DNA from: Chrysomallon squamiferum
Taxonomy: Eukaryota > Mollusca > Gastropoda > Neomphalida > Peltospiridae
Direction: 5' to 3'
Length of the DNA: 64,000 nt
Assembly (NCBI GenBank): GCA_012295275.1
Contig: CM022667.1
Location: forward strand, 18,697,245 to 18,761,244
Shown here: positions 3,916 to 63,783 of the stretch, in pieces
Layout of the letters: every line of letters begins with the position of its first letter
Numbering within the stretch: position 1 is the first letter of the stretch
The notes under the pieces: generated by a model
Database searches by the model: none
Seen by the model: only the letters and a program-made list of their open reading frames with translations
Told to the model about the DNA's origin: nothing
Made by a program: the position numbers and the translations under genes

Positions 3916-3919
<4 letters not shown>

Positions 3920-3978
3920 GTTTGCCAGAAAATAGTGTTCAGACAGGTGGCCGTAATTAATCCCACAATTCCATTCTT

Positions 3979-3987
3979 TGCGCATGC
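3979..3987 (+). promoter_or_regulatory. NRF1-like site upstream of TAF4
   Basis: TGCGCATGC, close to the palindromic NRF1 consensus, lies 35 bases before the TAF4 start codon in otherwise AT-rich DNA. NRF1 sites are typical of housekeeping promoters near the start site. This is a motif match only. Confidence 0.4.
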
Positions 3988-4021
3988 TCAACTTCAGTCT
4001 AAAATTTGGCGAGCTAGGGAA

Positions 4022-6201: not shown

Positions 6202-6239
<38 letters not shown>

Positions 6240-22662: not shown

Positions 22663-24899
22663 ACAAAATAAAATACTTTAAAAAAATAATAAAATAAAAA
22701 ATAAAGAAGAAACTTATTGTTAATAAAAGAAAAATTAACACATGAAAGGACATTGCTGTATAATAGAATAACGACAAGGGCCTACAACTGACTTTTGGTG
22801 GATTTATATAAACAGATTTGAAACAATTTCAGATCAGTAACAATTGTATTAAGCAACTAGAAGGAATGAAATGAGCAAAACACTAACATTATTTTAAAAT
22901 TACTATTAGTTTTTATTTGTACAATAATAGATGCAGTTATACCTGGACCAATAAATTAAAATTTCCAATGTTCTTGTTAGGTAAAACTTGGTGAAATGTA
23001 TTGATTTTGTAAAAATTTAAAAAACTAGCATTACAAATAACTCTAATTATATTTTGAAGGACCAGAAATCATTTCCAAGCATATTTCATATTTTAGAAAG
23101 CAATGGAAATTAATTTTCATCTCATTATTTATTCTTCATAAACATTTTATATTTAAAATTTTAAAAGAAATATGATAAATATCAGGTTTCTCATTTTCAC
23201 TTGTTAAGACATATTAATGATTATCCAGTAAAACATTTTTCAACAATTTCTTTTTATTTTTTATTAATTTGTTTTTGTTTATCTCTGCTCACTTTTTTCA
23301 GGGAGCTATGTGATATTTCAAAGAAAAATGGTCAAAAATGTTTTCTAAATAAGAATTTTTTTTGTTTCAAACAAGGGAACATTGAACAGAAATACCTTAT
23401 AATGAAATGATTTATAATAAATAGGTGCAGATATTATATTGTATATATATATTCTGTCATAAATGTCAACAAATATTTGTAATGCAAATCCAGTTCTAAG
23501 AACAAAAATTACACCACTATCTTTTATATTTGTTTTAAAAATTATATAAAGGTATAATGATTATATGAATTACTCACAGATATTAACATATCTGAATTTA
23601 TATCTCATAACTTTATTAATAACTGAAACTTTACTTTTTTCTTTTTCTTGGAATGAATCAGAATGTTCAAATGAATTTGTAGCACTTTGTTTCTAAATGT
23701 TGCATAGCATCATCTCTGATTTGTTTATGTGCAAACAGTTGGTGATGTTGGCTTTAACTTAAATATATATAATTCTTTCATTTATGTTAATATGTTTCCT
23801 TTTGAAAATGAAATAAATATTTGTTGTAAATTATTTTTAGTAAAGGGATTCTAAAAATTGGATTATTATTCAAATATATTTGCCAATACCTGAAAATTCT
23901 ATACTTTTGAGATAGTGGGTGCATTATACACTGTTCTAAAATTTGATAAAATTTGGTTTACATATAGAGTTGAGTGTAACAATAAATATGACCAGCACAT
24001 AGTGTGGAAATACAAAAACAGTAATAAACATCACTTTTCTTATTACTTATCTACTAGAAGCACAACTCTCAAAAATCTATCTGAAAATCTATAATTAACC
24101 AGGTAATAAAATTTTAAATGTTATTATTCTGTTACCACAATAAATACCATTAAACTTATTCAGTAAATGGGTTCGGGTCATTCCATGTCAAATCACCCAG
24201 TGGGATAAACCGACCATCTCAGATTTTTATAAAACTTGGTATACTTAATGAGTGGGATCCCACATAAATTTTAGGCTAATCAGACCAGTAGTTTGGGATA
24301 TATGGCCCCCTGTATTTTGAGATTTTTGGCAAAAATGGGCGTGACCACAAACCTTTGAACCCTCATATCTCAGAAACTACTGGGCCGATCTTGCTATTGT
24401 TGAAAAGGCAATATGACAACGATTCCAAATCTGCCATTATTTTCCAGTTGGGGTAAACTAACCTTTTGACCTTTGTTATGACCTTGTGGATCATGTGACC
24501 TTGAGATAACCTTTCTTGAAATTTAATCTCCCACATGTTAACTAAAACATATATAAGTTTCAGAGCTATAATATTTTTTGTTTAGCCACAATTTAGATTT
24601 AAAAAATGCATATTGCATGGATGACTGATATTATGCATTACAATGTAATTTTCTACATGTATAGACTTTTCTGAGACCAAAAACTCATCTTTGATGTTAA
24701 AATCCACCTGACATGTCTGAAGAAATGCCTGAAGGATATGAAAAGATGCCAAATGGTATGGCATTTTCTACACAATCGGGCCCAAAGGGTTAACAGGACG
24801 TGTGGCTTCAGGCATGTCAGGAACTCCTTGAAATCCCCTGGTGAAATCCCCATTGAGCACATGGCAATTATATTACTATTATAACTCCCTTTAGACTCC

Positions 24900-34246: not shown

Positions 34247-34261
34247 ATGATCATGGCACTG
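34234..34261 (+). repeat. 28-bp repeat containing the ADCK5 start codon, copy 1
   Basis: Nine T residues followed by AAGAATGATCATGGCACTG recur exactly at 41507-41534, in ADCK5 intron 7. This copy covers the ADCK5 initiation codons at 34247 and 34253. Confidence 0.8.
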
Positions 34262-34614
34262 ACATGCATCAAACAGATGAGACCATATATGAAATGTTAT
34301 TTCACATTGCCGTCTGTATTGCTATCAAAACCATTACCAGACCCTGTTAGGCATGGTTATATGTGTTGTGCCAAAGTAGAAAAATGCGTTCTTGTAACTA
34401 AAAACAACCAGTGTGGATTTAATCGTTGTTTGTTCACAAGGGCAAGGATTGTTAGAAAACACTGGGCAGTTCAAGGGGTTCTCATGTTTGGTGGTTTAGG
34501 TATTGTGTCACTTGCAGCCTACAACTACTTTCTGGATGTCCGACAGAAGAGACAAGTGAGAATACTGTTAGGTGGAATTGCCAGATTCTTAAGGTATATC
34601 AAGATTTAATACAG

Positions 34615-34663
<49 letters not shown>

Positions 34664-37600
34664 ATAACACTGGACAATTATTTTTATGATCAAGACATCT
34701 GTAGTGAAGATGACAAATTATTGGCTTTAAGTTTGAGCATAGTGATTTTGTTTCTGACAAATGTAAAATTGCATGTTACTATGTTATTAAGAAAATAAAT
34801 AATAGATCTCTTATTTTGTCTGTAGGTCATTACAAATTGGTCTTGCTATCTCAATGGACTATAAGTGGACACTGTGGGGTCTAGATGAGGATTCAGAAGA
34901 GTATAAAGAAGTCATTGGTCCATGTCATGAGCGAGCAGCTGAAAGAATTTTGGTTGGCTGCTTGAAGAATGGTGGACTTTATATTAAACTGGGGCAGGGT
35001 CTTGTATCAATGAATCACATTCTTCCAAAGGAATACACCAATGTGCTTGTTGTACTTCAGGATAAAACCCTGGCAAAAAAACCACATGAGGTATAAATCA
35101 TTTAATTAGGTTGATTGAATTAATTACTTCTTTAGTAACTTCAGATTCGCTTAATTCTGGGGTGGTAAATATAGGTGGGTCATTATTGTAAATATATATA
35201 ATCTTTTTCTAATGTTAATATTTGCTTATGAAATTATTAATTTAATTTAATTTATATAACCTCATACAGAAAAACTCTTTTGACAGATATAGACTTGCTT
35301 TTTGGAATAATTTATAAATTTCTTTAAAAAGATATTGCTTAAATAATACATTCTAAACTATAGCTGAATATGTTTTTAAAATAATTATATTAAACATTAG
35401 AAATGGAAAGTTATTAACTAGCTAAGTTAATGTTAGAGTTCTATATCCAAATCAGTTATTATTTCAAGGTTGAACAGTTGTTTTTGGAAGATTTTGGTAA
35501 GACACCACAGCAGATGTTTCGCTGGTTTGATGAAAAAGAAATTGCTGCTGCCAGCCTAGCTCAAGTTCACAAAGCTATCACACATGATGGCCAGAATGTT
35601 GCAGTCAAGGTACTTACGTACAAAACAAATTACATACATTCTTTTTATCACCATGATTTGATACAGTGAGTTTTTATATTTCCTAATGGTTCCAGGAATA
35701 TCATGATTATTTGTTAAAACAATGCATTACAAAGGAATAATAAACACTATTTTTTACCTCACTTTAGTCAATGTCCAGTAATTTGAAATAAAACAAATTA
35801 ATAATTGATTTTAACAGCAATGTTATATTTGGAAATGGTGCGTTTTAACAGGATTTGTATCTTTAGCCACTTCTGTTCTGATTGATAACAAGACAGCAAA
35901 TGTATGAAATATATTATCATACTGATAAATGATTTTGCTTTTGCAAACCTTATAAAGTTTCTTTACAGATACAGTATATTGACTTGAGAGACAGGTTTGC
36001 TGGTGACATTCGCACCTGTGAGATTCTTTTAACTATTATTGGCTGGATTCACCCTAAATTCTCTTTTGCATGGACACTTCAGGTGAGTAGAGGATTCATC
36101 CATTGTTTTCTTTAAAAGTTTGGTTAACAGTACTAAGTATAAAACTATTTCTTTATGATTTAAATTATTAACCAATGTCCTTAATGCTTGTATGAACATG
36201 AACAGCCCTCCAAAATTTCCTTATACCCATAAAATAACAAAAATATTTAAAAAGGCTTTTACAGCAAAACAAACATTATTTTAAAACAGATTACATTGTT
36301 AATATCTTTCTACTGTTATTGTACCTCTACTATGACATTATAGGTACTGGCCCTTTGATGGCCTTGAAAAAAGTATAGTCAATCAAGTCGAAAGTGGCTT
36401 TCACTTTTTTTATGAAGTACTGCAGTAATATTTTGATGCTTTAGATACCTTTGTTTATGTATTAATGATGTTACTATTTTTGAAAAAAAACTTTTTTATA
36501 TTTACAATGTAATCAGGATTATTTAAATTTTAATATATTTCTTCAAGGACTTAAAAGCAACCCTTCAGCAGGAACTAGACTTTGAAAATGAAGGAAGAAA
36601 CAGTGAACAGTGTCAAGAAGATCTCAAACACTTGAAATATGTCTATGTTCCAAAAGTCTTCTGGGAGATGACAACCAAGGTGAGTTAATTTTTATTAAAG
36701 TAATATATTTACCACTGTTTGGATCTGCATAATGTTTTTCTAATTTATATCAATTATCATTAAAATATTCTCATTCTGAAACCATTTTCTAAAAATCTTT
36801 GCAAGCTATTATGAGGTATATGAGATGATTTCAGTGTTATATAATTTTAGCAATAACTTTTTAAAATATCTGTTTAGTTATTGTAATATGTAGCAGTGGT
36901 CTTGCCAGCTTTTATGGAAGGGATGGCGGGAATTGGTGTAACTGGTGCAAGTTAAATGAAGGGATGGTACTGAACATTTTCAGGGTCAAGTCCTTGGACC
37001 ATTCTTCAGATTACTTGTTTGTCAAAAATACTTCTATAAATAATTGTATCAAATGCATTAACTATTAACAAATTTATTTTATTTGCAATTAAATAAAGTC
37101 AAAGTGTCTGTTGCCGGCAAATTTTGTCCGGTTATTCTTTACATGAATATACAAAATAATACACCTATACGTACTCACATGTATGTGTTTGTGTGTATGT
37201 ATACATATATATATAGATAGATAGATAGATATACAGATACTGTTTTGTAACCTGTATATATATTAATTATTATATAAATGTCTGTGAAATGTGAGATCGT
37301 TTTCGTTGCTCTGAAAGTAAAAAATTGCCATGCAGTATGATAATTAATATTTATGAGAATATGTACTGTTAATAATAATTATTTTTATATTGTGTGGATT
37401 GAACAACAAAGACAATATTTTAAAAAGTTGTTTATGTATTATAGGATAATGTAATTATTATACAGCTGTATTTGTAGTGATCATTAAAATTCATGTGCAG
37501 TAATTTAGCTGTGCAGCACCTGCTATAGTAGCCTTGATTACACAAGCATTGTGAGTAGCAGCAAATTTCAGAGGAATTGGATTTTGTCCCTTTGTAAATA

Positions 37601-40600
37601 AGACAGTCATGGCTTCGGACAAGACACATGAACTGCTGACCCCAAAAGTACAAAACAATGGCATGACAGCCAGTCTAAATAAACGGATGTCAGATATTGA
37701 TTACAGTATGAAGCGAGACCTCTGTATAGACTCAAGTCAAAGATTAAATTTATTTATTAAGTTGGAAAATTTGTTTTAATTTCAAATTTTGTTTTTACAG
37801 AGAATATTGACAACAGAATTTATTGATGGGTACAAAATTAGTGACATTGATGGAATAAAGAGCCTAGGACTTTCAATATCCGATGTAAGTAATTTTATTT
37901 TGTATATAATTATAAACAATTTCTGCATTACAAAAATAATTTAAAACAGGTACTGCATTAATAAATTTAATTCTGAAAATATTACCGATTATGTTTTATA
38001 TTAAAAGAGGATAAAAGGAACAATGAACATGAGTTAATATAGGGAAGGATTGGAAGGGGTCATTCCATATCAAATCACCCCCCAAAAAACAACAATTAAA
38101 TGTCTCCTATTTTTATGAAACTTCTTATACCTGGGATCCAGGCCAATCGAACCAGTGGTGTGGGAGATAGGGCCCCTCAGATTTTGAGATTTTTGGCAAA
38201 AATGGGTGTGACCACCACCCTTTGAACCCTCATATCTCAGGAACTACTAGGACAATCTTCATAAAATTGGTATTGTTGAAAAGGCAATACGACAAGGATT
38301 CCAAATCTGCCATTATTGAAAATTCTGGTGTACACTGACCGTTTGATCTTTGTTATGACCTTGAAATTGACCTTGGGGATCACGTGAACTTGAGATGACC
38401 TTTATTGAAATTTAATCTCCCACATCTTAACTAAAATATATAAAAGTTTCCTGGGTGTAATATCTTTTGTTTAGCCACAATATAGATTTAAAAGCTGCAC
38501 ATCCATGAAAATAACACCTTTTCTGCCATTAACATCTGCCATTAAAACCTGAATGATCAATTCTGGATGCTAGGAATCACCATCTCTCTTGATCACCGAG
38601 TAAGACGTTGTAGGCCTACATGTATGCATAAAGTTCACATAAATTTGAGAGAACTAGGCGTTTCTGACGCTTAACCTTCTCACCATCTTTGTTTTGAATG
38701 CTCACTGTATCCTTCATTCCCGGACACATTCTACTCTTCTTGTCACTTCCATAAAATTGGACTATTTCCTCCTTCATTTCATTTAACAGAATTTCCCTTG
38801 TTTCTTATCAGAGAGGGATAGAATCCCTTTCTCTTTCTTCACCACACAGCTTTTTTTTGACAAGGTAATTCATTGTTTCATATTCATTCATTGCCTTTCA
38901 GTGGTAAAGGGTGACAAAGTCAAGATTTGCATACACTCTGGGTAGGATTCAGACATCTTGAATTTCTCTTTTAACTCCTCCAACATGTTACTGAATAAAT
39001 GAAGATCTGATTTTTCTGATGAGCCAAGGTCACTTTCAGGAGAAAGAAATGGAATATCATAGACTATTTCAAGATGTCATTTTAATGTTACTGTAGCTGA
39101 TGCTAGTTTTTTCTGTCCTTTCATTTGTTTACTGGAACATGCTAGTGAATGGAGTTTAACAGGAGTTTCGCCTAAACGTGACAGGCTAGAATTCAAATCA
39201 AGGTCCTTTTCTGGGGAAACAACAACCAGCAGTTTGTCTGGCAAGTTATCATCAAATTCTTCCATAGTAATACCACCCATACTAAAGCCATCCTCTTCAG
39301 GGTTTTGGACCTTTGATTTCTGAAGTCAAATCAGACAGTCACAGCACAATGTGTCTCCTGGCACCAGTATCTTTGGAGGATTTACTAAGCATTTGCAAGT
39401 ACCCATGCTAAGAATTCTTAAAGATCTAGTGTGTGCTTGCTTAGGATGGCAATTAAGGGGATCACAACACTTTTTCCGCAATGTAGAAAACTTGATTAAA
39501 AGTTCTTGTTTGTGATGTAAACTGATACTCTTAATGTTCCATGTTTTGATTACACTTCAAAGAGTGAGGAGTTCGACTTCCTCAGTTTTCCACACACTTC
39601 GCAACAAATCCTTTTTGGTATGATGGTGTTGATAACACACATTTTCAGGAGAGTAAAAGCTGCAGTTAGCCCTGGAAGAAATAAGGATTTTCAGTTCAGT
39701 TCAATAGAACAAAGTCAGTACTTTCCTAAATATCAAATCAAATCCTGAAACCCTTTCAGTAAAGTTAAGCAGGTCATAAAATGGCAGCAGAGTACATGTG
39801 TCATTGCCAAAGGCCCACAAGTCTTGTTCATTTAGGTCAAACTTTTCAAGTATAAATCACAGTTTATCAAGGTGAAGGTAGACCTTGTTCATATTCTGTG
39901 CTGAAGACTGGATGTACAAATTCATTATGCAGTACATCACTTGATGAAGTCTGATTTCAGACTGGGTTGTACTGTAGTTGACTGAAACCTTGTTCAAAAC
40001 CATTGGCAAGGCACCTGACATGATAAAATGACTTAATAGGTTTTATGAAGAAAACATAATGCTTACATATCAACATCTGACATTGTGTCCAAGTTTAAAT
40101 CTTCAGATTGTCAAAGAAATGCAGATGAAGAAACTTCTTTGTCTTAAACTTCTAACTGCATGTTCTCAATGGGGATTGCATCATTAAAGGAGTTCCTGAC
40201 CTGCCTGAAGCATCACTTCCTGTTAACCCTTTGAGCCTGATTGTGTAGAACATGTCATGCCATTTGGAATCTTTTCATATCCTTCAGGCATTCCTTCAGA
40301 CAGGTCAGGTGGGTTTTAACTCCAAAGATGAGTTTTTGGTCTCAGAGAAGTGTATACATGTAGAAAATGTACATTGTAATGCACTGTATCAATCATCCAT
40401 GCAGGTATGAATTTTGTAAATCTATATTATGGCTAAACAAAAAATTTTACACCCAGGAAACTTTTATATGATTTAATTAACATATGTGGGAGATTAAATT
40501 TCAATAAAGGTAATTTCAAGGTCACGTGATCCACAAGGCCAATTTCAAGGTCATAGCAAAGGTCAAAAGGTAAATGTACCCCAACATTTTCCTGAGATAT

Positions 40601-43600
40601 GAGGGTTCAAAGATTGGTGGTAACACCCATTTTTGCCAAAAATCTCAAAATTCCATGGGCCATATCTCCCACACGACTGGTCTGATTGGCCTAAAATTTC
40701 AGATTTGATGCTGTGGGATCCCAATCAACAAGTATACCAAGTTTCATGAAGTAATTTTTTTGAGACTGTAACTTGTTCTTTTTTGGTTGTTTTTGATATT
40801 GTCATATCGTGTGAGCTATTCAACAAAATAGATTTCTATTTTTAAACTTTTTATTTTTATTTTTTATTTTTTTTTATTCTTTTTTTGTATAGAAAAAGAA
40901 ACTGTAAATAAATTTTATAGATTACTGTTGTCTATCCACATTTTATTCAGATAAAAGATAAGAATGATATGGTAGTGATTACCTAGTGATCTTCTTCTCT
41001 CTTTCTCTCTTTCATACCTGAAATAATATAAAATTCTCTTTAATAATCAATACATTTTATTGGCTAATTTACTTAATCTTTGTTACAGGCTGACCACAAA
41101 CTGATTAAATGCTTTGCTGACCAGATATTCCGTTCTGGTTTTGTTCATGCTGATCCACATCCAGGTAATATATTTGTACGGACTGGACCTGATGGTAAAA
41201 CACAGCTGGTTCTGCTTGACCATGGCCTGTATGAGAGACTGTCACAAAAAGACCGCAAGGCTCTCTGTCACATGTACAAAGCTATCATCATGAAGAAAGC
41301 AGATGACATGGAGAAGTATTCAAATATTCTCGGAGTTAGTGGTAAGAAAGGATCAGTTTTTATTGCTTTATTTAATATTGTTTCCTCCAAGGATGACAAT
41401 ACTTGATTATTAGTAAAGACTGGTGTTTCTAGCACAAATAAAACAATAACTTTGAATTATGTCATCTGTGGTAGTCATTTTGTAAATTAAAAAGTTACTG
41501 GCATAATTTTTTTTTAAGAATGATCATGGCACTGTAGTTCTAAAATAAATTTGCGAGTTACTGCAGAGAAATATTGACAATTTGTGATATTTCATACTAA
41601 TGTTGTTCATGATTAGACCTTATTTAAATTATTATTTGTTTATAAATAACAAATATTTTGTATGATACATGTTAAATGGATAAAGTTACTCATTGTCTAA
41701 CCATTATAATACAGTTATCTTGTAACTATGCAGAACTGAGATTTTATCTTTTTGCATCAAAACTTTGAATTATGACTGACTTTTTTTCTTAACAAAAATA
41801 TTTCTTGTATTAAAAAGAATTGTATGTGTTAGTAATGTAACAGGACAGTGTAATAACAAACATTTTAATGATTAATTTTTCTGTAAGTAATTTTCATGAT
41901 TACTGAACATATTCTTCAATAATTTACGTGGTTAATGTTTTTTAAGTTTATAATTTCTTATCAGAAAGGTTATACTTTCAGTTGAACAGAAGAGCAGGTT
42001 ATAATATTGTTTCTAAATATCTAAATTTCTCATAAAATATTAAATGATATATGTTTCGCGTTTTTAAAAAATATTGAAAATGAAACAGTGATAATAATTT
42101 CAAGTCAGAGTAATTTCCTTTGGACGTAGAAATTTTATTTTTATTTAAAATAAAATTAAATTAAATTAAATTTAAAAAAATATAAGTCAGTCAAACATTA
42201 AATACAAATACACACTTTAACAAAAATGTTTTCATTAAAACAATGTTACTGCTTTACATTTGTATAGAACATGTTAATCTGAAATACATATTTTATAATT
42301 CTGATTAAAAAAAAATTATATTAAGCTTTACTGGTTAATTAATATTGGTAATTTTTGTTGTTGATATTATTTTCAACAGATTTTCAAGTTTTTGCAACAA
42401 TTTTAATGCAGCGTCCAGTTACAGTGAGGAACAAGCCTCTCGTAAGCAATGTTCCTCGTTCGCGTCATGAGTGGCGTAACTTGTCAAAGGAACAAAAGGC
42501 TGAAATAAGGAAGAAGTTTACTGATCTTCATGATCGCATTTTGCAGGTCATGAGAGCTATGCCCAGTGAAATGTTTTGGATTCTTAGGTAGGATTTTGTG
42601 TTGAAAGTCTTGTATACCAACACTTGTTTCGTGTCGATTTTACAGCCATTATTAAATTCAGGCTTTTGAACATCATGTACATTCTGTTATTCTGAAGATA
42701 TCGAAAAATAGAATTACAAAATTTCACTGATTTGTTTTAAGTTGTTTTAATTTGAGAATGCAACCATTAAATGGACTATTTCCATTGATTAATTGCCTAT
42801 AATTTGCTTCAGTCTTTTACAGCCAGTTTTGAGACTAAGAAAAGAAAACATAGACATTTTATTTTTATTTTTCACAATTTATACTATTAACAGTGTACAT
42901 AATAAAATAAGTTTGTGGTGAAAACAAGTATATGCAATTAAAAGTTTGACATTCAAAGGTTTTGAACAAAGCATAACAGTGTCTTTTCAAACCTAAAATA
43001 TGAAAATAATTTTCTTTCATAATTGTCTGAGTTGCCGTAATTTATTGAGAATGCTGATAAGTACATTAAAACATTTTTAATAAATATTTTTTTAACACAT
43101 TGACCCACATTCATGATGTTTTGAACAAAACCAAGTCAAACATGAATTAGCATTAATAATTAGTGAATTGGTAAGGGCACAAACATTATTTATGAGTTTT
43201 AACTTGCTTCTCATTAGTAAGCATGTTTGGACATACAGTCCAGGAATCTGCAGAAAAGAGATTATCCATATATGTGACTTGTATCCTCAGTGTCTGCCAG
43301 TTTACCAACCGTATTGTAACTGCTGAATCAGAGTGCACTTGCAGAGATGAAATGTATCTGAACAGGCAGCCAACACATTTCATTCATAACATGTAGCTTG
43401 ATTCCATAGTTTAATTAATTTCTAAAATGAATACTAAAATGAATCTGGCTTCCATTTTCTTAAATCTATGCAAGTTGATATTAAATTAACTTTCTGTTCA
43501 ACAATTTTTAACAATTTTTTTTGCATACCACTTATTTCTTGATATATTTTAGATACTCTTATTTCATTTCATAAATTAGATTAAAAACATCATATTGTAT

Positions 43601-46600
43601 TATTTTTCCAATCAGCTTTTTAAAATAATTTATTATCAAAAACATCCATTAAAGCGTGTCACAGTATTCATTATCAAAAACATCATTTAAAATATCTCAT
43701 AATAATTCATTATCTAATAATCATTTAAAATATCACAAAATAATTTATTATCTAAAACATCATTTAAAATATAACACAATAATTAATTATCTAAAACATC
43801 ATTTAAAATATGCTGCAGTAATAAATTATCTAAAACTCCATTTAAATTATCTCACAATAATTCATTACCCAAAACATAAATTCAAAATATATCACAATAA
43901 TTCATTTTCCAAAACATCAATTTAAAAAATCTCACATTAATTCATTATCTAAACTGCCCAATGCCAGGTTTAAAATTATCTAAAACTACTGTTTCTTTAG
44001 ACAATTATCTACAAAGAAAAAAGTAATAATACCCCACCAATTTCAAAAACTTATTTTTCTATATATTTTGAATCTTTACCTCTTTGTCTATTGTTTGTGT
44101 TTTAAATTTCCTGATTCTTTTATTTTCTGATTTCTATGTTCAATTTTTAAAAATTGTTGAGTGAATTGTAATTTTAATATATGGCATAGTTATGTAATTT
44201 ATGCCCATAAGCACATTGTTTATGTTTTACACTTTGTCATTCTTTTCATTCAGGAACATTGTCATGAAAGTGTATTATACAAATGTTAAGAGAGGCTTGT
44301 TCTTCAGTCATAATTGGCTTTATAGAAAGTATTTTAATCTGTTTTCATATTTTCAGTTTACTTTTCCATTTATTTTTATTATTATTATTATTATTTTTGT
44401 TGTTTATTTATTTAACAGTTTTTTGAATAATACATTCTTTCATTTTGGATATTTGTTGATTTTTTGTTGTTTACCATATACAAAATCCATAACTTTCAAA
44501 AGCAAACATATATTTAGTTCTTCCCTTGCATAGTTACATTAATAATAATAATAATAATATATATATATATGTGTGTGTTATTAATGTTTCATTTCTGCCT
44601 TATCCATATGGACCATATTGACAAGATTTGTTTGAACAGATCTTTCCACCAATAAACAGCATAAAACAATAAGTATCTTAAGCTTGTACCAGGCAACACC
44701 AGTCTATAAATTTTTAAAGTTTTCAGATGAAAATATCAACAAAAGATTGTCACCTCTGGGGACTGCAACTTCTATTATCTTACTATTAATAGATAACTGT
44801 TAAACTTTTTTCTTCTACACAGACCCCTTAATCTTTGCTGAGATCTTAGTACAGAGACCTGTGACCAGGAGCACTTTTTATCTGCCCAGTCATTTGACTG
44901 ACAAAGACTTGGAATATATGCAGAGTATGGCTCGCAGACAGTTCGACAGAATTATGGCTGTTTTGCAGGCCATGCCACGAACTCTGTTGTTGGTGATCAG
45001 GTGAGGCTCTATTCTGTTTATGGGTCTCCTCCATTAGATGACAAGCTTCCAACATATTTGTTCCCACACAATTAATATTTTGAAATCTGGGAAGATGGCT
45101 CTTGGATGTTTTGGTTCTGAGGGTATAAATGTAAACAAATTAATTTTTGAAATTTTTATTTCCACTGTGATTTAAAAATAATAATAATAATAATAATTTA
45201 AAAAAATTAAGAAAATAAATTTATTTATTAATAATTAGAATTGAATTAAAAGCACAATGGTAGGAAAATATGCTTTGGGTATATCCAAAAAATTAGAAGC
45301 ACTTTCCACATTTTAGATCTGATTATAAGTTGGTACTTAATGATAATTATTGTATAGTTTCCACTCATAAATTTATAAAACAAGAAAGTGTTTACAGGTT
45401 ATTATTTTTTCATTTTTATAATAGTAAATGATATTAAGCCTGAATCCAAAATATTTATAGCAGCATTATTTTCCATGAAATAACATCTGTTGCTTTTTGT
45501 TTTTTGTTTGTTAATCCAGGAAATTAATCTGCTGTTTTTGATCCAATAGCTTCTGCATTGAGAAAGGAAACAATTAAACTAACTTTTGTTAAGATAGAAA
45601 ATACACTGGCTTTCATACTGCACTATAAATTATAATGCCAAGTATACAGAAGTACACACAGAGAGTAAATTGACCTTGTGACCAATAGCACTATTACTCA
45701 ACTGATGCCCTGTTCAAATATCTGCAGTAAAAATGTTTAGTTGAATATCCTAAAAAGCTGCATGCTAAAGTTCATGTTATCATTGTCTACATTTTTCTTT
45801 TTTTCATTTTCATGTTTATTTTCTTTCTTTTGTACCTTCATTTTTAATTATTTATTTCGTTTATATCATTTTTCATTTTAATTAGTTAAAAACAGTTTAA
45901 AAATCTAGCTAAACAGAGTTAAAAATTGTTGTTAAACTTGGAATGCTGTTGGCTGCCTCAGCATTTTGTCAGAGGTTTGGCATTTGTAACCAAAACACAC
46001 ACACACTTTTTTTAACTGAATTACACACATTGTATGTTAACAGATATTAGGGCATATAAGTATGGAAATTGTATTTCTGAATGACACACATGATATAAAA
46101 AATAAATAAAGTTATATCTGAGAAGGCTCAAAATTATTATTTATATAATTAAATCTCTTATGGTTGAAGTCAGACACTGAATGTTGTAATCTTTTACAGG
46201 TTGTTACAAGAGAAACATTTACTAAATAGATACTTGTATTTTTTTTATTAGGTTTGCATTTATTATTGTTATTGTTATTGTTATTTTAATCTATTCAGAT
46301 TTTAATCAAAACTAAGGTACTTTTGTTTTATTTTTTAATAATGTATTTTTTGTAAGTATGAAAAGTGAGTCTGACAGGCAGACCTGTGTGAAAGGCAAAT
46401 TGTTTGAAACTGGTTCAACATAAAAATACTTATTTTGCTTATTTTTCTGAGTAGTTATTTTTAATTATTATTTTCATATTTCATACATCTCTTGGCTTTC
46501 ATTAAAAGGTATTTAACTGATAAAAACATTCTTTATTTTAATGTTTACACTGACAGAAACTTGAACACAATTCGGTCTATAACACGAGAACATGGAAATC

Positions 46601-47782
46601 CTGTAGATCAGTACAGCATTATGGCAAGAGGGTATGTCTGTATTACAGACTTAATAATTAAATTATGTTTCAATTATATACTTAATATTAAAAATTAAAT
46701 TATGATTCCATTATAAACAAGCTTTTTATAACATTAAATAAAATTTTTATTATGATTCCATTTATTCTGTAAGTTTTGTTGTACTTTTCCTGTATGTTTG
46801 TAGTGCAAACTAATACTAAATATCTATATTAAATATTCAAATAAAATTGTGTTATATGTGAATCATTCAGTGAATTGATTTTACTGAATTCTTTAATTAA
46901 TCTGAGAATAATTTGAAAACTAATTATTATTCTCATGTTATGAGTTTGAAATTTTTACTTTAAATTTTTATTGCATTCAAATAAAAAGTGGAATTTCATA
47001 AGTACATTTTTGCTTATAATAAACTGAAAAGATTTTATATTTCTTCTGCATTTATGCTGTTGGATATAAATCAGTTTTTGTTTGGTGTATTAAAGTGTCA
47101 GTTTATGTTTTTGTGTGTGTGTTTTAGTGAGTGAAATTGAAACAGAAAGAACATCATTTCTAAATAAAACTTGTATTTATTTTTTATTATTTCAGTGCCA
47201 TTTCAGGCAGTGCACTCAACACAGAAAAAACATTTAGTGTAAGACACTTATTGTACTCCTGGTGGGAGAGATGTGTCTTCGATTTTAGAATTTATTCAGA
47301 AAATTTCAAATTCACTCTGATGAACTGGGTGGCCTTCTCTTATCTGAAGATTCTTAAGTGGATGGGTAGAGCTCCATCTATTGAAGAGTTTAAGAGATTT
47401 GCCAAGACAGAAGAAAGAAGGTAATATTTAGTTTTTTATGTAAAATAAATCATATAACCAATGTGTCTGACGACTATTTGCAAAATGACTAAGAAATCAG
47501 TGTCTAAGAGATTAGGAGTTAATGAATAGTTTTAATATTACATAAGAAATGAGAAAAAACTGCTGAACAACATATTTTTTAGTTCTTTGCAAATAACTAA
47601 AGTTCAAAGGAATTAAAAATCTGTTAAAAAAGAGAATATTTAGTTTCACTATTAATATATCAGTAAATACTGGTTTAAATTATTTATTTGAGAAAGTGTT
47701 TAAAATCGTTTCATATTTCCATGTTTTTACTCTTCTTATTTGCTTATTTTTATTTTATTTTTTTAGATATGAAGCTCTGTAG
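34247..47782 (+). CDS. ADCK5: ADCK5, aarF/UbiB-family atypical kinase (11 coding exons plus one alternative)
   Basis: ADCK5 belongs to the UbiB/COQ8-like protein kinase-like family, expected in mitochondria; its substrate is unsettled. Exons: 34247-34593, 34826-35090, 35469-35609, 35969-36082, 36548-36679, 37801-37884, 41089-41341, then 42380-42587 or 44823-45000, then 46557-46631, 47196-47420, 47767-47782. This gives 609 residues with the second alternative exon and 619 with the first; human ADCK5 is about 580. Visible family marks: KLGQG (170-174), the alanine-rich loop AAASLAQVH (230-238) in place of a glycine loop, VAVK with the nucleotide-binding Lys251, ELDFE (298-302, ExD), HADPHPGN (381-388) and DHG (405-407). 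All catalytic marks are intact. The N-terminus is basic and followed by a hydrophobic stretch near 83-95, as in mitochondrial membrane proteins. Start at 34247 or at the better-context ATG at 34253. AATAAA at 47996 is a likely poly(A) signal. Confidence 0.93.
34614..34659. repeat. (CA)n microsatellite just after ADCK5 exon 1
   Basis: About 22 CA units begin only 20 bases past the exon 1 donor at 34594. CA runs next to donors can act as splicing regulators through hnRNP L, which is general knowledge and not shown here. Confidence 0.9.
36893..37137 (+). mobile_element. Possible truncated hAT-like fragment in ADCK5 intron 5
   Basis: CAGTGGTCTTGCCAGC followed by a G-rich stretch (GGGATGGCGGGAATTGG) resembles the left end of some hAT elements. 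No matching right terminus or target duplication was found, so this is weak. The end coordinate is arbitrary. Confidence 0.25.
38057..40805 (-). mobile_element. DNA transposon with long terminal inverted repeats, copy 2 (family A), in ADCK5 intron 6
   Basis: The left arm (38057-38490) starts GGGTCATTCCATATCAAATC and closely matches the arm at 24175. The right arm (about 40390-40760) is its reverse complement, with shared blocks TTGAGATTTTTGGCAAAAAT, TTTGAACCCTCATATCTC, GATCACGTGA and TTTAATCTCCCACAT. The internal gene runs on the minus strand. Next to the right arm lies the same start region as in copy 1 (GAAGGAATGCCTGAAGG), then the N-terminal half of a protein (38640-40200). The C-terminal half present in copy 1 is missing here. 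The element is therefore a deletion derivative, antisense to ADCK5. The outermost right end is diverged and its boundary approximate. Confidence 0.78.
38640..40260 (-). pseudogene. N-terminal half of family A transposon protein, decayed
   Basis: Reading the minus strand leftwards, a cysteine-rich block appears near 39300-39500 ([14 protein letters not shown], then a CxC, then [10 protein letters not shown]), a fairly acidic block at 39077-39280 ([18 protein letters not shown]) and a later block at 38650-38790 ([13 protein letters not shown] and VKRQKRLVL). Several stops and frameshifts break it. The FYxSDxxSRxxPGxKDxVS and QKRLVL patterns are ones the reader associates with the same uncharacterised repetitive protein family whose C-terminal half is at 25557-26325. 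The paired cysteines suggest a zinc-binding domain that could bind the termini. Function is inferred from context only. Confidence 0.5.
41507..41534 (+). repeat. 28-bp repeat, copy 2, in ADCK5 intron 7
   Basis: Exact copy of 34234-34261. Beyond the shared 28 bases the sequences diverge (CACTGTAGTTC here, CACTGACATGC at the gene start). Confidence 0.8.
42380..42587 (+). CDS. ADCK5: ADCK5 alternative exon 8a
   Basis: Acceptor TTTTCAACAG, donor CTTAG/GTAGGA, 208 bases. It enters in phase 1 and leaves in phase 2. It encodes [15 protein letters not shown], then a basic middle (RSRHEW and KAEIRKK), then [19 protein letters not shown]. It is clearly homologous to exon 8b, with the same start and end pattern, but its middle is ten codons longer and more basic. 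Vertebrate ADCK5, as recalled, is closer to 8b in length and sequence. Confidence 0.88.
43625..43965 (+). repeat. 39-bp minisatellite between ADCK5 exons 8a and 8b
   Basis: About eight imperfect units of the type AAAACATCATTTAAAATAT followed by CTCACAATAATTCATTATCT repeat with a period near 39 bases. Because 39 is a multiple of three, one frame reads as a repeating 13-residue peptide; it has no start context or resemblance and is not a gene. Confidence 0.85.
44823..45000 (+). CDS. ADCK5: ADCK5 alternative exon 8b
   Basis: Acceptor TTCTTCTACACAG, donor ATCAG/GTGAGG, 178 bases, phase 1 in and phase 2 out, identical to exon 8a. It encodes [15 protein letters not shown], then a polar middle ([17 protein letters not shown]), then [20 protein letters not shown]. 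It resembles the block that follows the catalytic core in vertebrate ADCK5 (FAEMLMQRPV ... MAVLRALPRP). Joined after 8a it would read AGA CCC CTT AAT CTT TGC TGA, a stop in seven codons. Confidence 0.9.
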
Positions 47783-58099: not shown

Positions 58100-59063
58100 C
58101 TTAGGCTGTCCTAGGCACGCGAGGAGTAATTGCGGGCATGCTTTGCTCGGATTTACAATTTGTGGGCTATTAATATTCGATTCGTTGTGTCTACCTTGTG
58201 TTTGAGTACTTGGGTACCATCGACTTCCTTCAGTAAAAAGTTTGTCGATTACTAATGTCGCACGGCGTACATGTTTTCAATAAACTTTGACCATAAACCT
58301 TTTCTGCGTTCCACAATCTCGCGCGGAAACTGTTCACCGATACCAAACTGAGTTCCTTTCAAAACTTTAGAATTTCTTCAAACAGTTTCTTTGTCTTTTA
58401 ATCTTTCAACAGGTCGTGGCCTAGTTGAGTTTGGTACATTCCGTCCGAGAAGGTGCACACGATCAAATGCAAAAATATTTTTGTGTTAGATTTGTTCTTT
58501 AAGAAACTGATTTTCTACTTGCTTTGTATCCTCATCGTCTTTTTCTACAATCCCGTTGAAAATCAGGTTGTTTCTCATTGATCGTGTCTGAATAACTAGC
58601 ACATTTGCATACGGATCATCATAATCATGCCGGAACTGTTAATTTCATTATAATATTTCTTAACTTGTTTACCTCTTCCTTCATAGCTGCAACCACATCC
58701 GCCACTTTCTTTCTTTCCGTATGGGCTTCTTCAAAGCTAGCGTTTACAAAATATATAGATTCTTCTAACTTAGGGATTTTTATGCAATTGAATTTTAAAA
58801 TCAGTGACAATGGTTACAATAATATTTAATCGTTTCGCAATACCTTCTATTTTTATCTGTTTTCTCCGAAATGAGAAGAAGTGTATGTGAGATTGCATTT
58901 ATTTTCTGAAATATCTGGTTGGTATCCATGATGGTATTTGCAGTTGTAACACAGGCTGAACTTGGTAAGCTGGATTTCCGTATGCAGGCGAGCGAGTTAA
59001 TGCACTGCTAAATAAAACTTGTGGTTGTGTGGCGGACGCACTAGTCGGAGAATCTGACGCCAT
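58100..59063 (-). pseudogene. LINE ORF1 remnant
   Basis: The minus strand opens with ATG at 59063 (MASDSPTSASATQPQ), shows a coiled-coil-like stretch at 58625-58810 (KVADVVAAMKEEVNKLRNII) and then RSMRNNLIFNGI-like, FDRVHLLGR, RPRPVERLKDKE and GIGEQFPREIVERRKGL (58290-58345). That is the order coiled coil, RRM-like domain and C-terminal domain of L1-type ORF1 proteins, which bind the element's RNA. At least three frameshifts or stops break it. Confidence 0.75.
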
Positions 59064-59119
59064 CTTTTCTTTCGCTTCTATCCGTTTATGATTGTTTTCT
59101 TTCTTCTTGTGTCCCTTCT

Positions 59120-59125
59120 TTTATT
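59120..59125 (-). terminator. Candidate poly(A) signal for the P4HA gene
   Basis: AATAAA on the minus strand lies 137 bases past the P4HA stop codon, just before the LINE begins. No other hexamer is closer. Confidence 0.4.
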
Positions 59126-59261
59126 TGCTGGTTATTTTGTCATATAATATGTTATATACTAATAATAATTTGTTTCCATCATATTTATGTTAAAATATTT
59201 AAAAACAAGATATATAATACCGCAGCTAATTTTCTTCAAGCGTCCACCCTCTTGTCATGCG

Positions 59262-61195
59262 CTACAGGCTGAACTGTTCTCCGCCAGAGGATACTCGGGC
59301 TAGTTGGTGCCCTGCATTGGGATTAATGTTTTTAAGTGGAATTAATGTTACAAAGTTAAATATACATACCCCACTTTTGTCCGTACAAAACAGGACAACC
59401 GCCATGCATAGTTCTTTGATCACGTTGCCCATCTGGAGTATAGTTATACCAAAACACAGCAGAATACTGAGAAAAAAGTTTTTAAATCAAACTAGCTGAA
59501 GTAATTTTTTTAATATAAAGGAATTTTTTTTTTTTTTTTTCATTTTATTTTATTTTTTTTTATTTGTTTTTCATTCATTTATTGTTTATTTGTTTTGTTA
59601 ACACTTGTGCGAGTTTTTGTATAGACCCTCTAACGTATTTACGCTATCATTGAAACATTCTACTATTTTTAACTGCAACTGCACTTCTATATTTATTGTT
59701 GATTTATTGGTAAAATAAGAAAAATACTGTTAGATTGGAATAAGTGGTTGGAATGATCTGTTTCTTTTTATACTCTACCTTAATTGGCTGAGCACCGATA
59801 CCTAAAAGTGGAAACACCGTAGCTCCACCAGCTTCAACATCACCTAACTGAAATGAAACAAACTTTAATAACTTAATAATCCTGTTTTAAATTCATTATC
59901 CAGTTATCAAAGCTATATGGCTTTACTGATTACACGGAGATATCATTTCACATGCAAACACATGAGTGTTTTTTATGCATACATACATACATACACATAT
60001 AGATACATAGATATTTACATATATACATACTTACACACATAATACATACATACATATATATTTACACACACACAATAATAATAATAATAATTATTATTAG
60101 TAGTAGTAGTAGTAGTAATAGTAGTAGGAGCAGCAGTAGCAAAGAACATCACTTACATAAAACATGAATGTCGCTAATCTGTCGCCGCTGTCTTTGGTAA
60201 AACCACTTAAACTTTTCAGAGTGTCTGGATCCTGGTGAAACAAACAAACAGAACAACAATAAATATACAGAGAGTCAGATAGAAAGATGATAAATATTAC
60301 TGTTAGAAATAGTCAACAAAACAAAACTTACGACATAATAATCATAATGAGGGATATACTGTCCACCTAAGCCATAATTCAGAACCTGAAATGTGAAAAT
60401 AAACATTTTAATAACAAAATAAAATAGAATATACTGATAACATAATTTACATGTATTCCCTTATGGCAAGTTAGCTTACATTTAGCATTGTTCAAAACTA
60501 TTGCCTGTAAGTTTTAGCAACTGTTGATAAAAATAACATATGACCAAAAAAACCACGAAAGTCTGCAAAACAATCAAACAACAAAACAAAACAAAACGAA
60601 ATAACAAACGAATAAACAACCAAATAAATAAATAAAACCCGATAATAGCTCCAAGTAGGTTCAGGATTCCACACTCTCAAAACTTTTAATTGTTAACGGA
60701 GATAGTACAGAGTTCAGATAAATGCTATACATTGTTAGTAATAACCTAATCACAGATGTTATAACTGCAGCAGAAAAGTACTCAAATCAATGACCTTTTT
60801 TCTTCTATGAAAAAAACAATTACCATTCCAGTCCTGGAATAAATCTAAATTTACAAATGATGTTATTTTAATAGTTTACTGTGTATATGTTGTTTTCATA
60901 AAATAAAAATGTGATCACATGTTTCTGTTCTGACATACCTGAAATGGTTCTGCAAGCGTTCTCTCCTCTCTGTAATCCGTGAGTAATCCTGTTATCTCTG
61001 AAACCCTTCGACTTAAGCGATGTATAATAGATGTATGATTGTCCCACATCCATGCCCTATTTTGAAACCAAATTGATTTTTTTTTTTTTTTTCGGAAATT
61101 ATATGAAAACGAAACGGGGTTCAGTTTTTAAAATAATTTAATATGCATTAAAACACAGAAAATATTCCTTAGGCATTACAAGAAATTTCTTTTTA

Positions 61196-61250
<55 letters not shown>

Positions 61251-61731
61251 TTTCATATTGCTTCATTTTCTCAAAATTCACTTCCATATGATGTATATGT
61301 TTTTTTCCCCATATATAAGAATAAGCTTAATTATTAAGATTCGAAATGTCACAGACACTATTCAGTCATTTTAAGACAGTTATGAGTATTTCATTAAATT
61401 AGGACCGTATATTTTTATTATTTATCTTTGTTTATATTCAAAGCTGTCATTAATTTGTATGCTGAAATATGAGACAATTACTCTGCACGCCTTTATAATC
61501 AGATCTACAACAGTTGTCTTTAGTAGAAGTGATATATAATATTTTGTATTTATTTTATTTTATTTTGCATGATATTTTCAATGATACATTTTAAATCAAT
61601 AATATAAACTATTCGTGCTGCTTTTTTCATAAAAAAGTAATTATTACCAGGAATCGCAAACATTAATCAACAGTATAAAAATTGTATTAAAAAAATCTAA
61701 ATTTTTAATCAAGATATGGCTTTCGTTACAT

Positions 61732-61778
<47 letters not shown>

Positions 61779-61922
61779 TTTGTGTGTGTGTCTGTGTGTT
61801 TCCTATTAAAAGGAATGATGGAATCTGACTGCATCTTGTGTCAATGTTAATAGCAAATTTTTAAATGAAAAAAGTTGGAAACAAAAATAAAAACAACAAA
61901 ATCATACACACAAGCATTGCAT

Positions 61923-61968
<46 letters not shown>

Positions 61969-62316
61969 TAACATAGAGAAACACACACTCACAAATGTAG
62001 AAACATACATACACAACAGCATACAGAACCATAGAGATGCACAATATCTATGATAAGGCTGAAATATGATAATTACTATACATTTTAAGCACCCCGCACC
62101 CATGCACACACATACACACACGAGAGAAAAACACCTGCATTCATTACTATACTGATAGACGAATACTATCGTACCTTGGTACAATTTAAACAGTGCTTTG
62201 TTACAAACAAAATGTATTCATAAACTCACACTTTACTTGTTCTTGCTTCATGCAGTTTAGGAGCATTTGGAGAATTACCAATCGCAGATCTTTCCAACTA
62301 AATTAATAATAATAAC

Positions 62317-62356
<40 letters not shown>

Positions 62357-62399
62357 GTAGTAGTAGTAGTAGCAGTAGTAGTAGTAGTAGTAGTAGTAA

Positions 62400-62433
<34 letters not shown>

Positions 62434-62959
62434 TTAGCACTGAAAATTTATCTGCATTATATTTATTAGTCGAACAGAAATAAAGAACAGTATGAAGTTT
62501 AAAAAACTAAAACCGGAATAACTTATATATTAATTTAGTGACTATTATGGGTGGTTAATCCGAGACGCTGTCGCCTAGAAGCTGCGGTGTGCTTTAGTTA
62601 CGTTGCAAAGTGCACTCGTTTAATATTATTATTGTTGTTGTTGTTGTAGTTAAATACTGAACAGTAGAAACTGGGGCTCTAATATATTAATAACGCTTGA
62701 AAATATACCTCTGTTATTATGATATTAATGCTCCATATGATATTTCAACATTATAATCATCTTCATTATCGTTATTATTAAGATTATTATCATTATTATT
62801 AGTAGTAGTAGTAGTAGTAAGGTTGTCAGATCAAGCGGACTGACGGAAACGAACTAAATCTATTAGATGAACATTTTGAACAGCTATGCAGAAAATATCA
62901 AAATACTAAACAAATGATACAGGTGCCCTAATTAATTAATTAAATTTATTTTTATTTTA

Positions 62960-63005
<46 letters not shown>

Positions 63006-63726
63006 CGTCACACGCTAAAGCTAATATTCTGTTAATGCGGACTGTGCTATGCGTTAAAATAGTTCGAAAGATTTCACATAAGCATTTCCCTAAATGTTTT
63101 CAGTCATTTTCTTTTCTTTTTCTTTATTATTTTTAAAGGGTTTTCTTCTGAAGAACGTGGCTAATCAAACTTTAGTTCAACAAAATGTAATATTATCTGA
63201 GGGAAATGAACAATATGTGTGCATGTACTTGATTTCCTCATCCGATTTTATACTCAGCTGCCTCATGAACTACTGACATTCTTGAAAGAATAATTCCTTT
63301 TAAACTTTTAAAAAGTTTAATCCTAACGGATCATAGTTGTATTTGCTTTATTAACAAAATTAATATAACAAAGTTATTGAAAAAGTTAAATTTTTCATTC
63401 TTACAAAGCTCATAAATACTTTCGTTACAAGACAGTTTAGGAAGAAGAAAAAAATCATTACTACCCATTTGGTATATATATATATATATTAATTACAGAA
63501 TGTAAACCTTCATTGAATAACATAATGTTATTATTAATATTCATTTAATTAAACTGTAACGAGCACGTACCATCGTTGTTGAAAGCTGTTTAATATGGTC
63601 CGTTTCGGTTTCGGAAATGACATCATAAAAAATGGCTACCGTTGGAGATTTACTCAATATTTCAGTTTTCCAGCGACGGTATGGAACGTTTCCGGTTGAA
63701 TAAAGGCAAACAGTTTTCCATGAGGT
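59262..63726 (-). CDS. P4HA: Prolyl 4-hydroxylase alpha subunit (P4HA), C-terminal half, 8 exons, 5' partial
   Basis: P4HA hydroxylates prolines in collagen in the ER lumen, using Fe(II), 2-oxoglutarate, oxygen and ascorbate, as a tetramer with PDI. Exons on the complement, 5' to 3': 63726-63571, 62297-62230, 61056-60939, 60385-60332, 60231-60157, 59847-59779, 59466-59370, 59311-59262. Phases agree throughout, giving 228 residues; the peptide-binding and N-terminal parts are off the right edge. Visible marks: [17 protein letters not shown] (start of the dioxygenase domain), [15 protein letters not shown] with the iron ligands Hx[33 protein letters not shown] with the distal iron His and the 2-oxoglutarate Lys. 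All four key residues are present. The last exon is less certain: its 58-base intron is very short and the ending [16 protein letters not shown] lacks the usual NKWxxxxGQ-type tail. If that intron is kept, the protein ends KWGMYI. It is probably one of several P4HA paralogs. Confidence 0.9.
61195..61250. repeat. (ATT)n microsatellite
   Basis: About 17 ATT units in the P4HA intron. Confidence 0.9.
61733..61966. repeat. (TG)n and (CA)n tracts in inverted arrangement
   Basis: A TG run of about 20 units (61733-61775, with a further TG run to 61800) and a CA run of about 19 units (61926-61966) lie 150 bases apart in the P4HA intron and are complementary. Confidence 0.85.
62310..62434. repeat. Compound (AAT)n-(AGT)n-(ATT)n tract
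   Basis: About 14 AAT units, then about 15 AGT-type units, then about 12 ATT units. The outer blocks are mutually complementary, so the tract is a large imperfect palindrome in the P4HA intron. Confidence 0.9.
63019..63163 (-). repeat. Intronic direct repeat of about 140 bp, copy A
   Basis: Matches 63784-63944 over its length with about 90 percent identity by eye. Shared blocks include CTGTTAATGCGGACTGT, TTTTCAGTCATTTTCTTTTC and TTTTCTTCTGAAGAACGTGG. This copy lies in the intron downstream (in gene sense) of the exon at 63571-63726. Confidence 0.85.
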
Positions 63727-63783
63727 CTACAAATAAATTGCAAAAGGTCAGCAAAAAAAAAAAAAAAAAAAAAGACTGAAAAT

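What the first reader, a model, noticed from the sequence alone, without database searches (positions are those of the whole stretch)
42380..45000. Frame-locked mutually exclusive exons in ADCK5
Exons 8a (42380-42587) and 8b (44823-45000) encode homologous blocks, share the same entry and exit phase and have good splice sites. Using both gives a stop after seven codons (…CTT TGC TGA). Skipping both also gives a stop (GAA ACT TGA at the next exon). Exactly one must be used, so two proteins of about 619 and 609 residues are predicted, differing only in the segment right after the kinase-like core. The reader knows of no report of this for ADCK5. Established parallel: in C. elegans and some other animals, COQ2 uses mutually exclusive exons to switch between ubiquinone and rhodoquinone. 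ADCK5 belongs to the UbiB family tied to quinone biology, so a hypoxia-linked or tissue-linked switch is a testable idea, but only an inference.
Basis: partly seen in the sequence, partly recalled or inferred. Interest (0 to 1): 0.88.

Follow-up and report, generated by a model that had tools for sequence, protein, structure and literature searches.

The report
Conserved swap exons in ADCK5
A snail-like animal's gene for the mitochondrial kinase-like protein ADCK5 carries two alternative versions of one exon, of which exactly one fits the reading frame, and the same pair shows up in other molluscs, in segmented worms and in a ribbon worm, so it looks like an old, useful switch whose purpose is not yet known.

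Summary
The window carries an intact ADCK5 coding region (34247-47782, + strand). At its eighth coding position lie two homologous exons, 8a (42380-42587) and 8b (44823-45000), with the same phases and GT-AG sites. Either one gives an open protein (619 or 609 aa); both or neither gives an early stop.

The pair is not private to this genome. Of the 120 ADCK5 relatives listed (of 3566 hits), 92 carry a B-type segment, 27 an A-type and one gene model both. Thirteen species have both forms on record: gastropods, bivalves, an annelid, a nemertean. In 9 of 13 the two records are identical outside the segment from end to end. A-type segments fall on one side of a 100/100 branch, and a profile of mollusc A segments recognises the annelid and nemertean ones. 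So the A exon is old and most likely arose once; B looks ancestral.

Databases already list such isoforms (X1/X2); my paper searches found no report. Exclusive use in this species, regulation and function are untested. The quinone/hypoxia link remains a guess: lineages reported to have the COQ2 e-exon also have this pair, but co-occurrence does not show a shared role.

The parts
34247..41341 (+). ADCK5 constant exons 1-7 (34247-34593, 34826-35090, 35469-35609, 35969-36082, 36548-36679, 37801-37884, 41089-41341); encode N-terminus and the ABC1/UbiB kinase-like core
   Evidence: splice model; Pfam ABC1 PF03109 residues 193-438, E 1.4e-76
42380..42587 (+). exon 8a (A-type, 70 residues, 446-515 of isoform A)
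   Evidence: (A profile E 5e-28)
44823..45000 (+). exon 8b (B-type, probably ancestral form, 60 residues, 446-505 of isoform B)
   Evidence: (B profile E 6e-31)
42588..44822 (+). 2235-nt intron between 8a and 8b; too long for steric exclusion of splicing; GT-AG
   Evidence: no U12-type donor pattern found
46557..47782 (+). constant exons 9-11 (46557-46631, 47196-47420, 47767-47782 with TAG); shared C-terminal tail

Best explanation
ADCK5 in this genome makes two proteins by mutually exclusive use of a tandemly duplicated exon. Shown here: two homologous exons with matching phases, of which exactly one keeps the frame; the same two segment types in molluscs, annelids and a nemertean; A-type segments set apart from all B-type ones by one strongly supported branch. 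Inferred: B, also found in deuterostomes and arthropods, is the ancestral form and A the derived alternative. Transcripts with both or neither stop early and should be removed by nonsense-mediated decay, so the frame enforces the choice, and regulation or competition between the two exons sets the ratio. Both proteins keep the whole kinase-like core; the swap replaces the roughly 60-70 residue, partly helical segment just after it. In A the invariant Glu of B is lost, about ten residues are added and the segment is more basic. The likeliest effect is a change in partner, membrane contact or regulation, with the catalytic core left unchanged.
For: Splice model and frame arithmetic. Window 8a and 8b each match the right family profile, built without the window. 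27 A, 92 B and 1 fused record among the 120 listed relatives; none lacks the segment. 13 same-species A/B pairs: 9 of 13 identical from first to last residue outside the segment; Littorina differs only at its N-terminus, Mya only at its C-terminus, C. virginica by two substitutions, Pomacea at both ends with one substitution. 58 of the 120 records list source 'lgn' (54 B, 4 A); 57 of these 58 have contigs of 1.8-3.5 kb that hold the whole frame, hence spliced transcripts (meaning of 'lgn' inferred). A segments on one side of a 100/100 branch, 28 against 42 rows. Mollusc A profile scores Owenia A 90.7, Paralvinella first half 56.7, Tubulanus A 50.8 bits, against 30.4, 21.6 and 16.9 for the mollusc B profile. 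Glu of the (A/C)EIL motif: 93 of 93 B rows (44 of 44 in the set without near-copies), 0 of 28 A rows. A more basic than B in 14 of 14 species pairs including the window (one ancestry, not independent). 8b has the better sites: donor/U1 pairing -11.6 against -9.1, 13 against 10 pyrimidines of 16.
Against: No RNA data for this species. Protein records are biased towards open frames, so transcripts with both or neither exon would not be seen. Most named records are automatic gene models. The site scores do not make 8a a weak exon: its donor pairs better than 7 of the 9 constitutive donors scored, so 'B is the default' rests on ancestry, not on splice sites. A evolves faster than B: mean identity over 91 species pairs 42% against 60%, core 72%, C-tail 45%. 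By plain identity, A was as close or closer to its own species' B than to another species' A in 26 of 182 comparisons, 15 of them with Tubulanus and the rest with the window, Littorina, Owenia or a scallop against distant A rows. The segment tree has few columns (70) and a very long Tubulanus branch. Genomic order of the exons was seen only in the window and, by a fused gene model, in Paralvinella. No solved structure found covers the segment, so its role is a guess.
Confidence: 0.88

Rival explanations
1. The exon choice is an oxygen- or anaerobiosis-linked switch that tunes ADCK5 for rhodoquinone or other anaerobic mitochondrial metabolism, run in step with COQ2 exon 6a/6e splicing.
For: ADCK5 is of the UbiB/ABC1 family. 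Rhodoquinone among animals is described only in nematodes, platyhelminths, molluscs and annelids; mutually exclusive COQ2 exons are reported for molluscs and annelids, with C. virginica, B. glabrata and Capitella as the species named in the methods (PMC7434440, passages), and for Alvinella and other alvinellids (PMC12403961, passages). A segments are present in C. virginica, B. glabrata and the alvinellid Paralvinella. Oyster AOX has a duplicated exon whose variant becomes dominant on air exposure (PMC5589949, 12 of 16 places seen). Human ADCK5 scored as hypoxia-essential in one cell screen (PMC13026493, passages).
Against: No link between ADCK5 and rhodoquinone found in print (one paper, with the two words in unrelated places of the held text). 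Nematodes and flatworms are not among the named records of the 120 listed relatives. Co-occurrence in a few lineages is expected from shared ancestry alone. A role of ADCK5 in quinone synthesis is only speculated (PMC11495197, passage).
Confidence: 0.15
2. The switch is tissue- or stage-specific tuning (for instance gonad, muscle or nervous system) without any quinone link, as most human tandem exon swaps are tissue-specific.
For: A survey of 236 human events reports three quarters of the isoforms as tissue-specific and most events as ancient (PMC9741552, abstract and 12 of 26 places). The pair here is also ancient.
Against: No tissue data for any mollusc were available here.
Confidence: 0.5
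3. 8a is a little-used or decaying exon kept mainly as a brake: its inclusion together with 8b makes a decay-targeted transcript that lowers ADCK5 levels.
For: 8a's sites are weaker than 8b's and its sequence less conserved; the two cephalopod-type records listed show B only.
Against: 8a's donor still pairs better than 7 of 9 constitutive donors scored. A-type residues are conserved across phyla, and A-only spliced records exist (P0085, P0088, P0091, P0093). A brake would not need conserved protein sequence.
Confidence: 0.06
4. A and B come from two paralogous genes, and the exon pair in the window is a coincidence of assembly or a lone duplication.
For: None found beyond the general possibility for gene models.
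Against: Both exons lie in one gene here; outside the segment the A and B records are identical from end to end in 9 of 13 species, which two old paralogues could hardly be.
Confidence: 0.01

Closest known systems
COQ2 exons 6a/6e (C. elegans, helminths, annelids, molluscs)
   Same: Mitochondrial quinone-related gene; homologous mutually exclusive internal exons; found in molluscs and annelids; one form shared with other animals and a second restricted (PMC7434440, passages)
   Different: Different gene and protein; the COQ2 exons remodel the enzyme core and switch product, whereas the ADCK5 exons lie after the kinase-like core and their effect is unknown; the ADCK5 exons differ in length by ten codons
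AOX duplicated exon 10 in oysters (PMC5589949, passages)
   Same: Mollusc mitochondrial gene with a tandem duplicated exon giving two proteins that differ in one homologous segment
   Different: Terminal exon with alternative 3' splice site; its authors found it in two oysters and not in four other molluscs; the ADCK5 pair is internal and spans three phyla
mrp-1 mutually exclusive exons (described in PMC7434440, passage)
   Same: Mutually exclusive exons in helminths, annelids and molluscs
   Different: Described there as independent origins and equal lengths; ADCK5 A segments group together
Human tandem duplicated exon substitutions (PMC9741552, passages)
   Same: Same class of splice event: proteins identical apart from one homologous stretch, often ancient
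   Different: ADCK does not occur in that paper's held main text; the A form is not seen in the three deuterostome records listed

Membership tests
Mutually exclusive tandem duplicated exons | Two adjacent homologous exons in one gene | tested here: met
Mutually exclusive tandem duplicated exons | Either exon alone keeps the frame | tested here: met
Mutually exclusive tandem duplicated exons | Products with exactly one of the two exist | tested here: met
   In 13 relatives, mostly gene models, and in lgn records read as spliced transcripts; not testable for this species
Mutually exclusive tandem duplicated exons | Transcripts with both or neither are rare | not testable with these tools
   Needs reads; protein records are biased to open frames
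Mutually exclusive tandem duplicated exons | A mechanism that forbids double inclusion (short intron, U2/U12 mix, competing RNA structure, or frame and decay) | tested here: inconclusive
   Short intron excluded (2235 nt) and no U12-type donor pattern; frame lock met; RNA pairing: 1 of 4 comparisons below all 15 shuffles, in AT-rich repeats
ADCK5 (UbiB/ABC1 family) | ABC1 kinase-like domain | tested here: met
   PF03109 E 1.4e-76
ADCK5 (UbiB/ABC1 family) | Closest named relatives are called ADCK5 | tested here: met
   most named records among the best 120 of 3566 hits say aarF domain-containing protein kinase 5; the others are unnamed, hypothetical or say only ABC1/ADCK
ADCK5 (UbiB/ABC1 family) | KxGQ, Ala-rich loop, invariant Lys, HxDPHPGN and DxG motifs (motif names recalled) | tested here: met
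   Read in the protein ([28 protein letters not shown]); all in constant exons
COQ2-type quinone switch | Exon choice changes quinone product | not testable with these tools
   Needs quinone assay
COQ2-type quinone switch | Restricted to rhodoquinone-making lineages | tested here: inconclusive
   Seen in molluscs, annelids, one nemertean; nematodes and flatworms not among the named records of the 120 listed

The most novel reading that the evidence does not exclude
Lophotrochozoans run a shared splicing programme that retools mitochondrial quinone proteins for low oxygen, with ADCK5 8b to 8a as a second, apparently unreported arm next to COQ2 6a to 6e, so that ADCK5-A serves rhodoquinone metabolism and its exon gives the first handle on what this orphan UbiB kinase does.
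Probability: 0.13. Interest if true: 0.88.

Novelty: new member of a known kind. Interest (0 to 1): 0.62.

Why it matters
ADCK5 is one of the least understood UbiB proteins. A pair of isoforms kept since before molluscs, annelids and nemerteans parted says that the segment after the kinase-like core has two separable jobs, and names the residues that separate them (Glu of the (A/C)EIL motif, the ten-residue insert, His for Phe in the long helix). This turns an orphan protein into one with a natural swap experiment. If the switch follows oxygen it would join COQ2 and oyster AOX as a further quinone-linked mitochondrial gene tuned by duplicated exons in these animals.

Tried and rejected
A search of the protein collection with the 70-residue 8a region alone found three candidates, none at E up to 1, and an 8a+8b alignment as short proteins found none. 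I nearly read this as absence of relatives; the full-length search showed that it was a limit of the word filter. Scans of viral contigs with 8a and 8b gave no relative. Rfam (gathering cut-off) and tRNA scans of the window gave nothing. Exons 8a and 8b folded alone gave mean pLDDT 68.6 and 70.9 with one long helix each: too weak for a fold search, so none was run. Searches of solved structures stop before the segment. Intron pairing between the intron upstream of 8a and the last 700 nt before 8b was -205.9 against shuffles of -179.1 (sd 7.6), 0 of 15 as low; the other three comparisons had 5, 14 and 15 of 15 shuffles as low. With AT-rich repeats and four tests I do not count this as a docking structure. 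My first reading that 8a's splice sites are weak was dropped: they are weaker than 8b's but its donor is better than 7 of 9 constitutive ones. Two papers that hold both search words were seen in passages and set aside: mouse Adck5 appears as a retained-intron row (PMC9467408), and the CoQ review only mentions ADCK5 (PMC11495197, of which 300,000 of 443,086 characters are held). I first took the window for an octopus from its look; the core tree puts it with gastropods, unstarred (88/84).
Full report
What is there. The window is animal DNA with long AT-rich introns. On the + strand at 34247-47782 lies an ADCK5 coding region of twelve exons, two of which, 8a and 8b, are alternatives. I rebuilt the model from the sequence: all introns are GT-AG, and exon 8a (42380-42587, 208 nt) and exon 8b (44823-45000, 178 nt) both enter after one base of a codon and leave after two. 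With 8a the protein is 619 residues, with 8b 609. With both, the frame shifts and meets TGA as the seventh codon; with neither it meets TGA as the third codon, GAA ACT TGA. The finding's coordinates and arithmetic are right.

Is it more than chance? The two exon proteins align with 21 of 66 identical, E 3e-8 for one comparison. Local intron sequence would leave 204 nt open with probability 0.005. Stronger evidence comes from relatives. Profiles built from other species' segments, with the window left out (27 A, 43 B sequences), were run against six-frame ORFs of 20 or more residues in the window. Each profile finds 8a and 8b only: A best at 8a (E 5e-28), B best at 8b (E 6e-31); there is no third copy.

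Relatives. A search with isoform B gave 3566 proteins, of which 120 are listed. All 120 were aligned and the exon-8 segment cut out: 92 are B-type (60-66 residues), 27 A-type (70-72), and one, a Paralvinella gene model, holds an A-type block followed by the later part of a B-type block. The Paralvinella model is probably a prediction error that used a site inside the second exon; it does suggest the order A then B. In 13 species both types are on record: Pomacea, Biomphalaria glabrata, Mizuhopecten, Aplysia, Littorina, Patella, Ylistrum, Crassostrea angulata, C. virginica, Saccostrea cucullata, Mya, Owenia (annelid) and Tubulanus (nemertean; taxonomy). Outside the segment the two records are identical from first to last residue in 9 of the 13. 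In Littorina the A record starts later, in Mya the C-terminal ends differ, in C. virginica there are two substitutions, and in Pomacea both ends differ with one substitution in the aligned part. Many of these records carry isoform labels X1, X2 or X3, so the isoforms are already in the databases.

Transcript-level evidence. 58 of the 120 records list the source 'lgn', 54 B and 4 A. For 57 of the 58 the longest contig is 1.8-3.5 kb and holds a whole frame of about 1.7-1.9 kb (the other, P0087, shares its record with a long NCBI contig), whereas the coding region here spans 13.5 kb, so I read them as spliced transcripts. That the label stands for assembled sequencing runs is my inference.

One origin. 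For the tree I used 70 segments: 68 relatives (27 A, 41 B) and the two window exons. 49 oyster-type B rows, near-copies of one another, and the fused Paralvinella row were left out before the segment set, and two further B rows (P0003, P0040) were left out of the tree. A and B are the two sides of one branch, support 100/100, in all 200 bootstrap trees examined; the program warns of few columns (70), and the Tubulanus A row has a very long branch. As a check, profiles made only from mollusc A (25) and mollusc B (28) segments were scored on other rows; unnamed rows were taken as molluscs from the core tree. Owenia A scores 90.7 against 30.4 bits, the Paralvinella first half 56.7 against 21.6, Tubulanus A 50.8 against 16.9. 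All ten B segments tested go the other way; one of them, Octopus, was itself in the B profile. So the A exon most likely existed before molluscs, annelids and nemerteans parted. B is the only type among the listed hemichordate, amphioxus, priapulid, horseshoe crab, insect and crustacean records, which makes B the likely ancestral form; but only 120 of 3566 hits could be seen, and B-type records rank higher for a B query, so A forms elsewhere are not excluded. Octopus bimaculoides and an unnamed record that groups with it are B only: a possible loss.

Two constraints. Over 14 species (the 13 and the window; 91 species pairs) mean identity is 42% for A, 60% for B, 72% for the core and 45% for the C-tail. 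Within species A and B agree at 27% on average. Against a clean split, A was as close or closer by plain identity to its own B than to another species' A in 26 of 182 comparisons; 15 of these involve Tubulanus, and the other 11 are the window, Littorina or Owenia against scallop or other bivalve A rows, or a scallop against the window. The profiles and the tree separate these rows; plain identity over 60-70 residues does not always. The Glu of the (A/C)EIL motif is kept in 93 of 93 B rows and in 0 of 28 A rows, window included and P0112 left out. His replaces Phe in 24 of 28 A rows, while 43 of 44 B rows have Phe. A is more basic than B in all 14 species pairs, though these share one ancestry.

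How it probably works. The Pfam ABC1 match ends at residue 438, just before the swapped segment at 446, and the catalytic motifs (names recalled) lie in constant exons. The segment follows the core, beyond what the solved relatives found cover. Folded alone each exon gives one long helix, with the extra residues of 8a before it (low confidence). I infer a change in partner, membrane contact or regulation, not in chemistry. For the splicing itself, steric exclusion is unlikely (2235-nt intron), no U12-type donor pattern was found, and the frame lock guarantees that wrong combinations stop early. 8b has the better donor and acceptor, but 8a's donor pairs better with U1 than 7 of the 9 constitutive donors scored, so 8a is not a weak exon and the ratio must be set by competition or regulation. 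A search for pairing introns is inconclusive.

What is known. COQ2 uses mutually exclusive exons to choose between ubiquinone and rhodoquinone, reported for helminths, annelids and molluscs (PMC7434440, passages) and found in Alvinella (PMC12403961, passages). Oyster AOX has a duplicated terminal exon whose variant becomes dominant on air exposure (PMC5589949, 12 of 16 places seen). Human tandem exon swaps are mostly ancient and tissue-specific (PMC9741552, abstract and 12 of 26 places). In the 12 of 27 places shown of an ADCK review nothing is said of such exons (PMC12193262). Searches that pair ADCK5 or the aarF phrase with mutually exclusive exons, molluscs, oyster splicing or rhodoquinone gave 1, 0, 0, 1 and 0 papers, none on this. 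Of the 104 papers that hold ADCK5, 40 were listed by title and start of abstract. The library holds only open-licence papers.

Verdict. A real, conserved exon pair that fits mutually exclusive splicing: a new member of a known kind, in a gene whose function is open. The quinone and oxygen reading is attractive and testable, but nothing here tests it.

Noticed in passing
37885-41088: Intron 6 of ADCK5 holds an element of about 2.6 kb with inverted ends (arms 38140-38243/40589-40692, 38318-38425/40484-40591, 38416-38493/40414-40491; 86-89% complementary); a similar reading ([11 protein letters not shown]...) at 24292-24453 suggests another copy.
   Followed up: partly
3872-12900: Upstream on the + strand lies a TAF4 gene (10749-10943 matches Pfam TAF4, E 2.7e-15; the outer limits are my reading of the ORFs).
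   Followed up: partly
58600-63730 (- strand): Several ORF pieces read to me like a prolyl 4-hydroxylase alpha subunit; the three pieces tried gave no Pfam match on their own.
   Followed up: partly
43643-43954: Seven-copy AT-rich repeat of about 39 nt between exons 8a and 8b.
   Followed up: no
P0111 (Octopus bimaculoides) and P0117: Cephalopod-type ADCK5 records sit on a long branch and are B-type only; the A exon may have been lost there together with faster evolution.
   Followed up: partly
P0006 (Biomphalaria glabrata isoform X3): B segment carries six extra residues at its start, perhaps an alternative acceptor or a model error.
   Followed up: no
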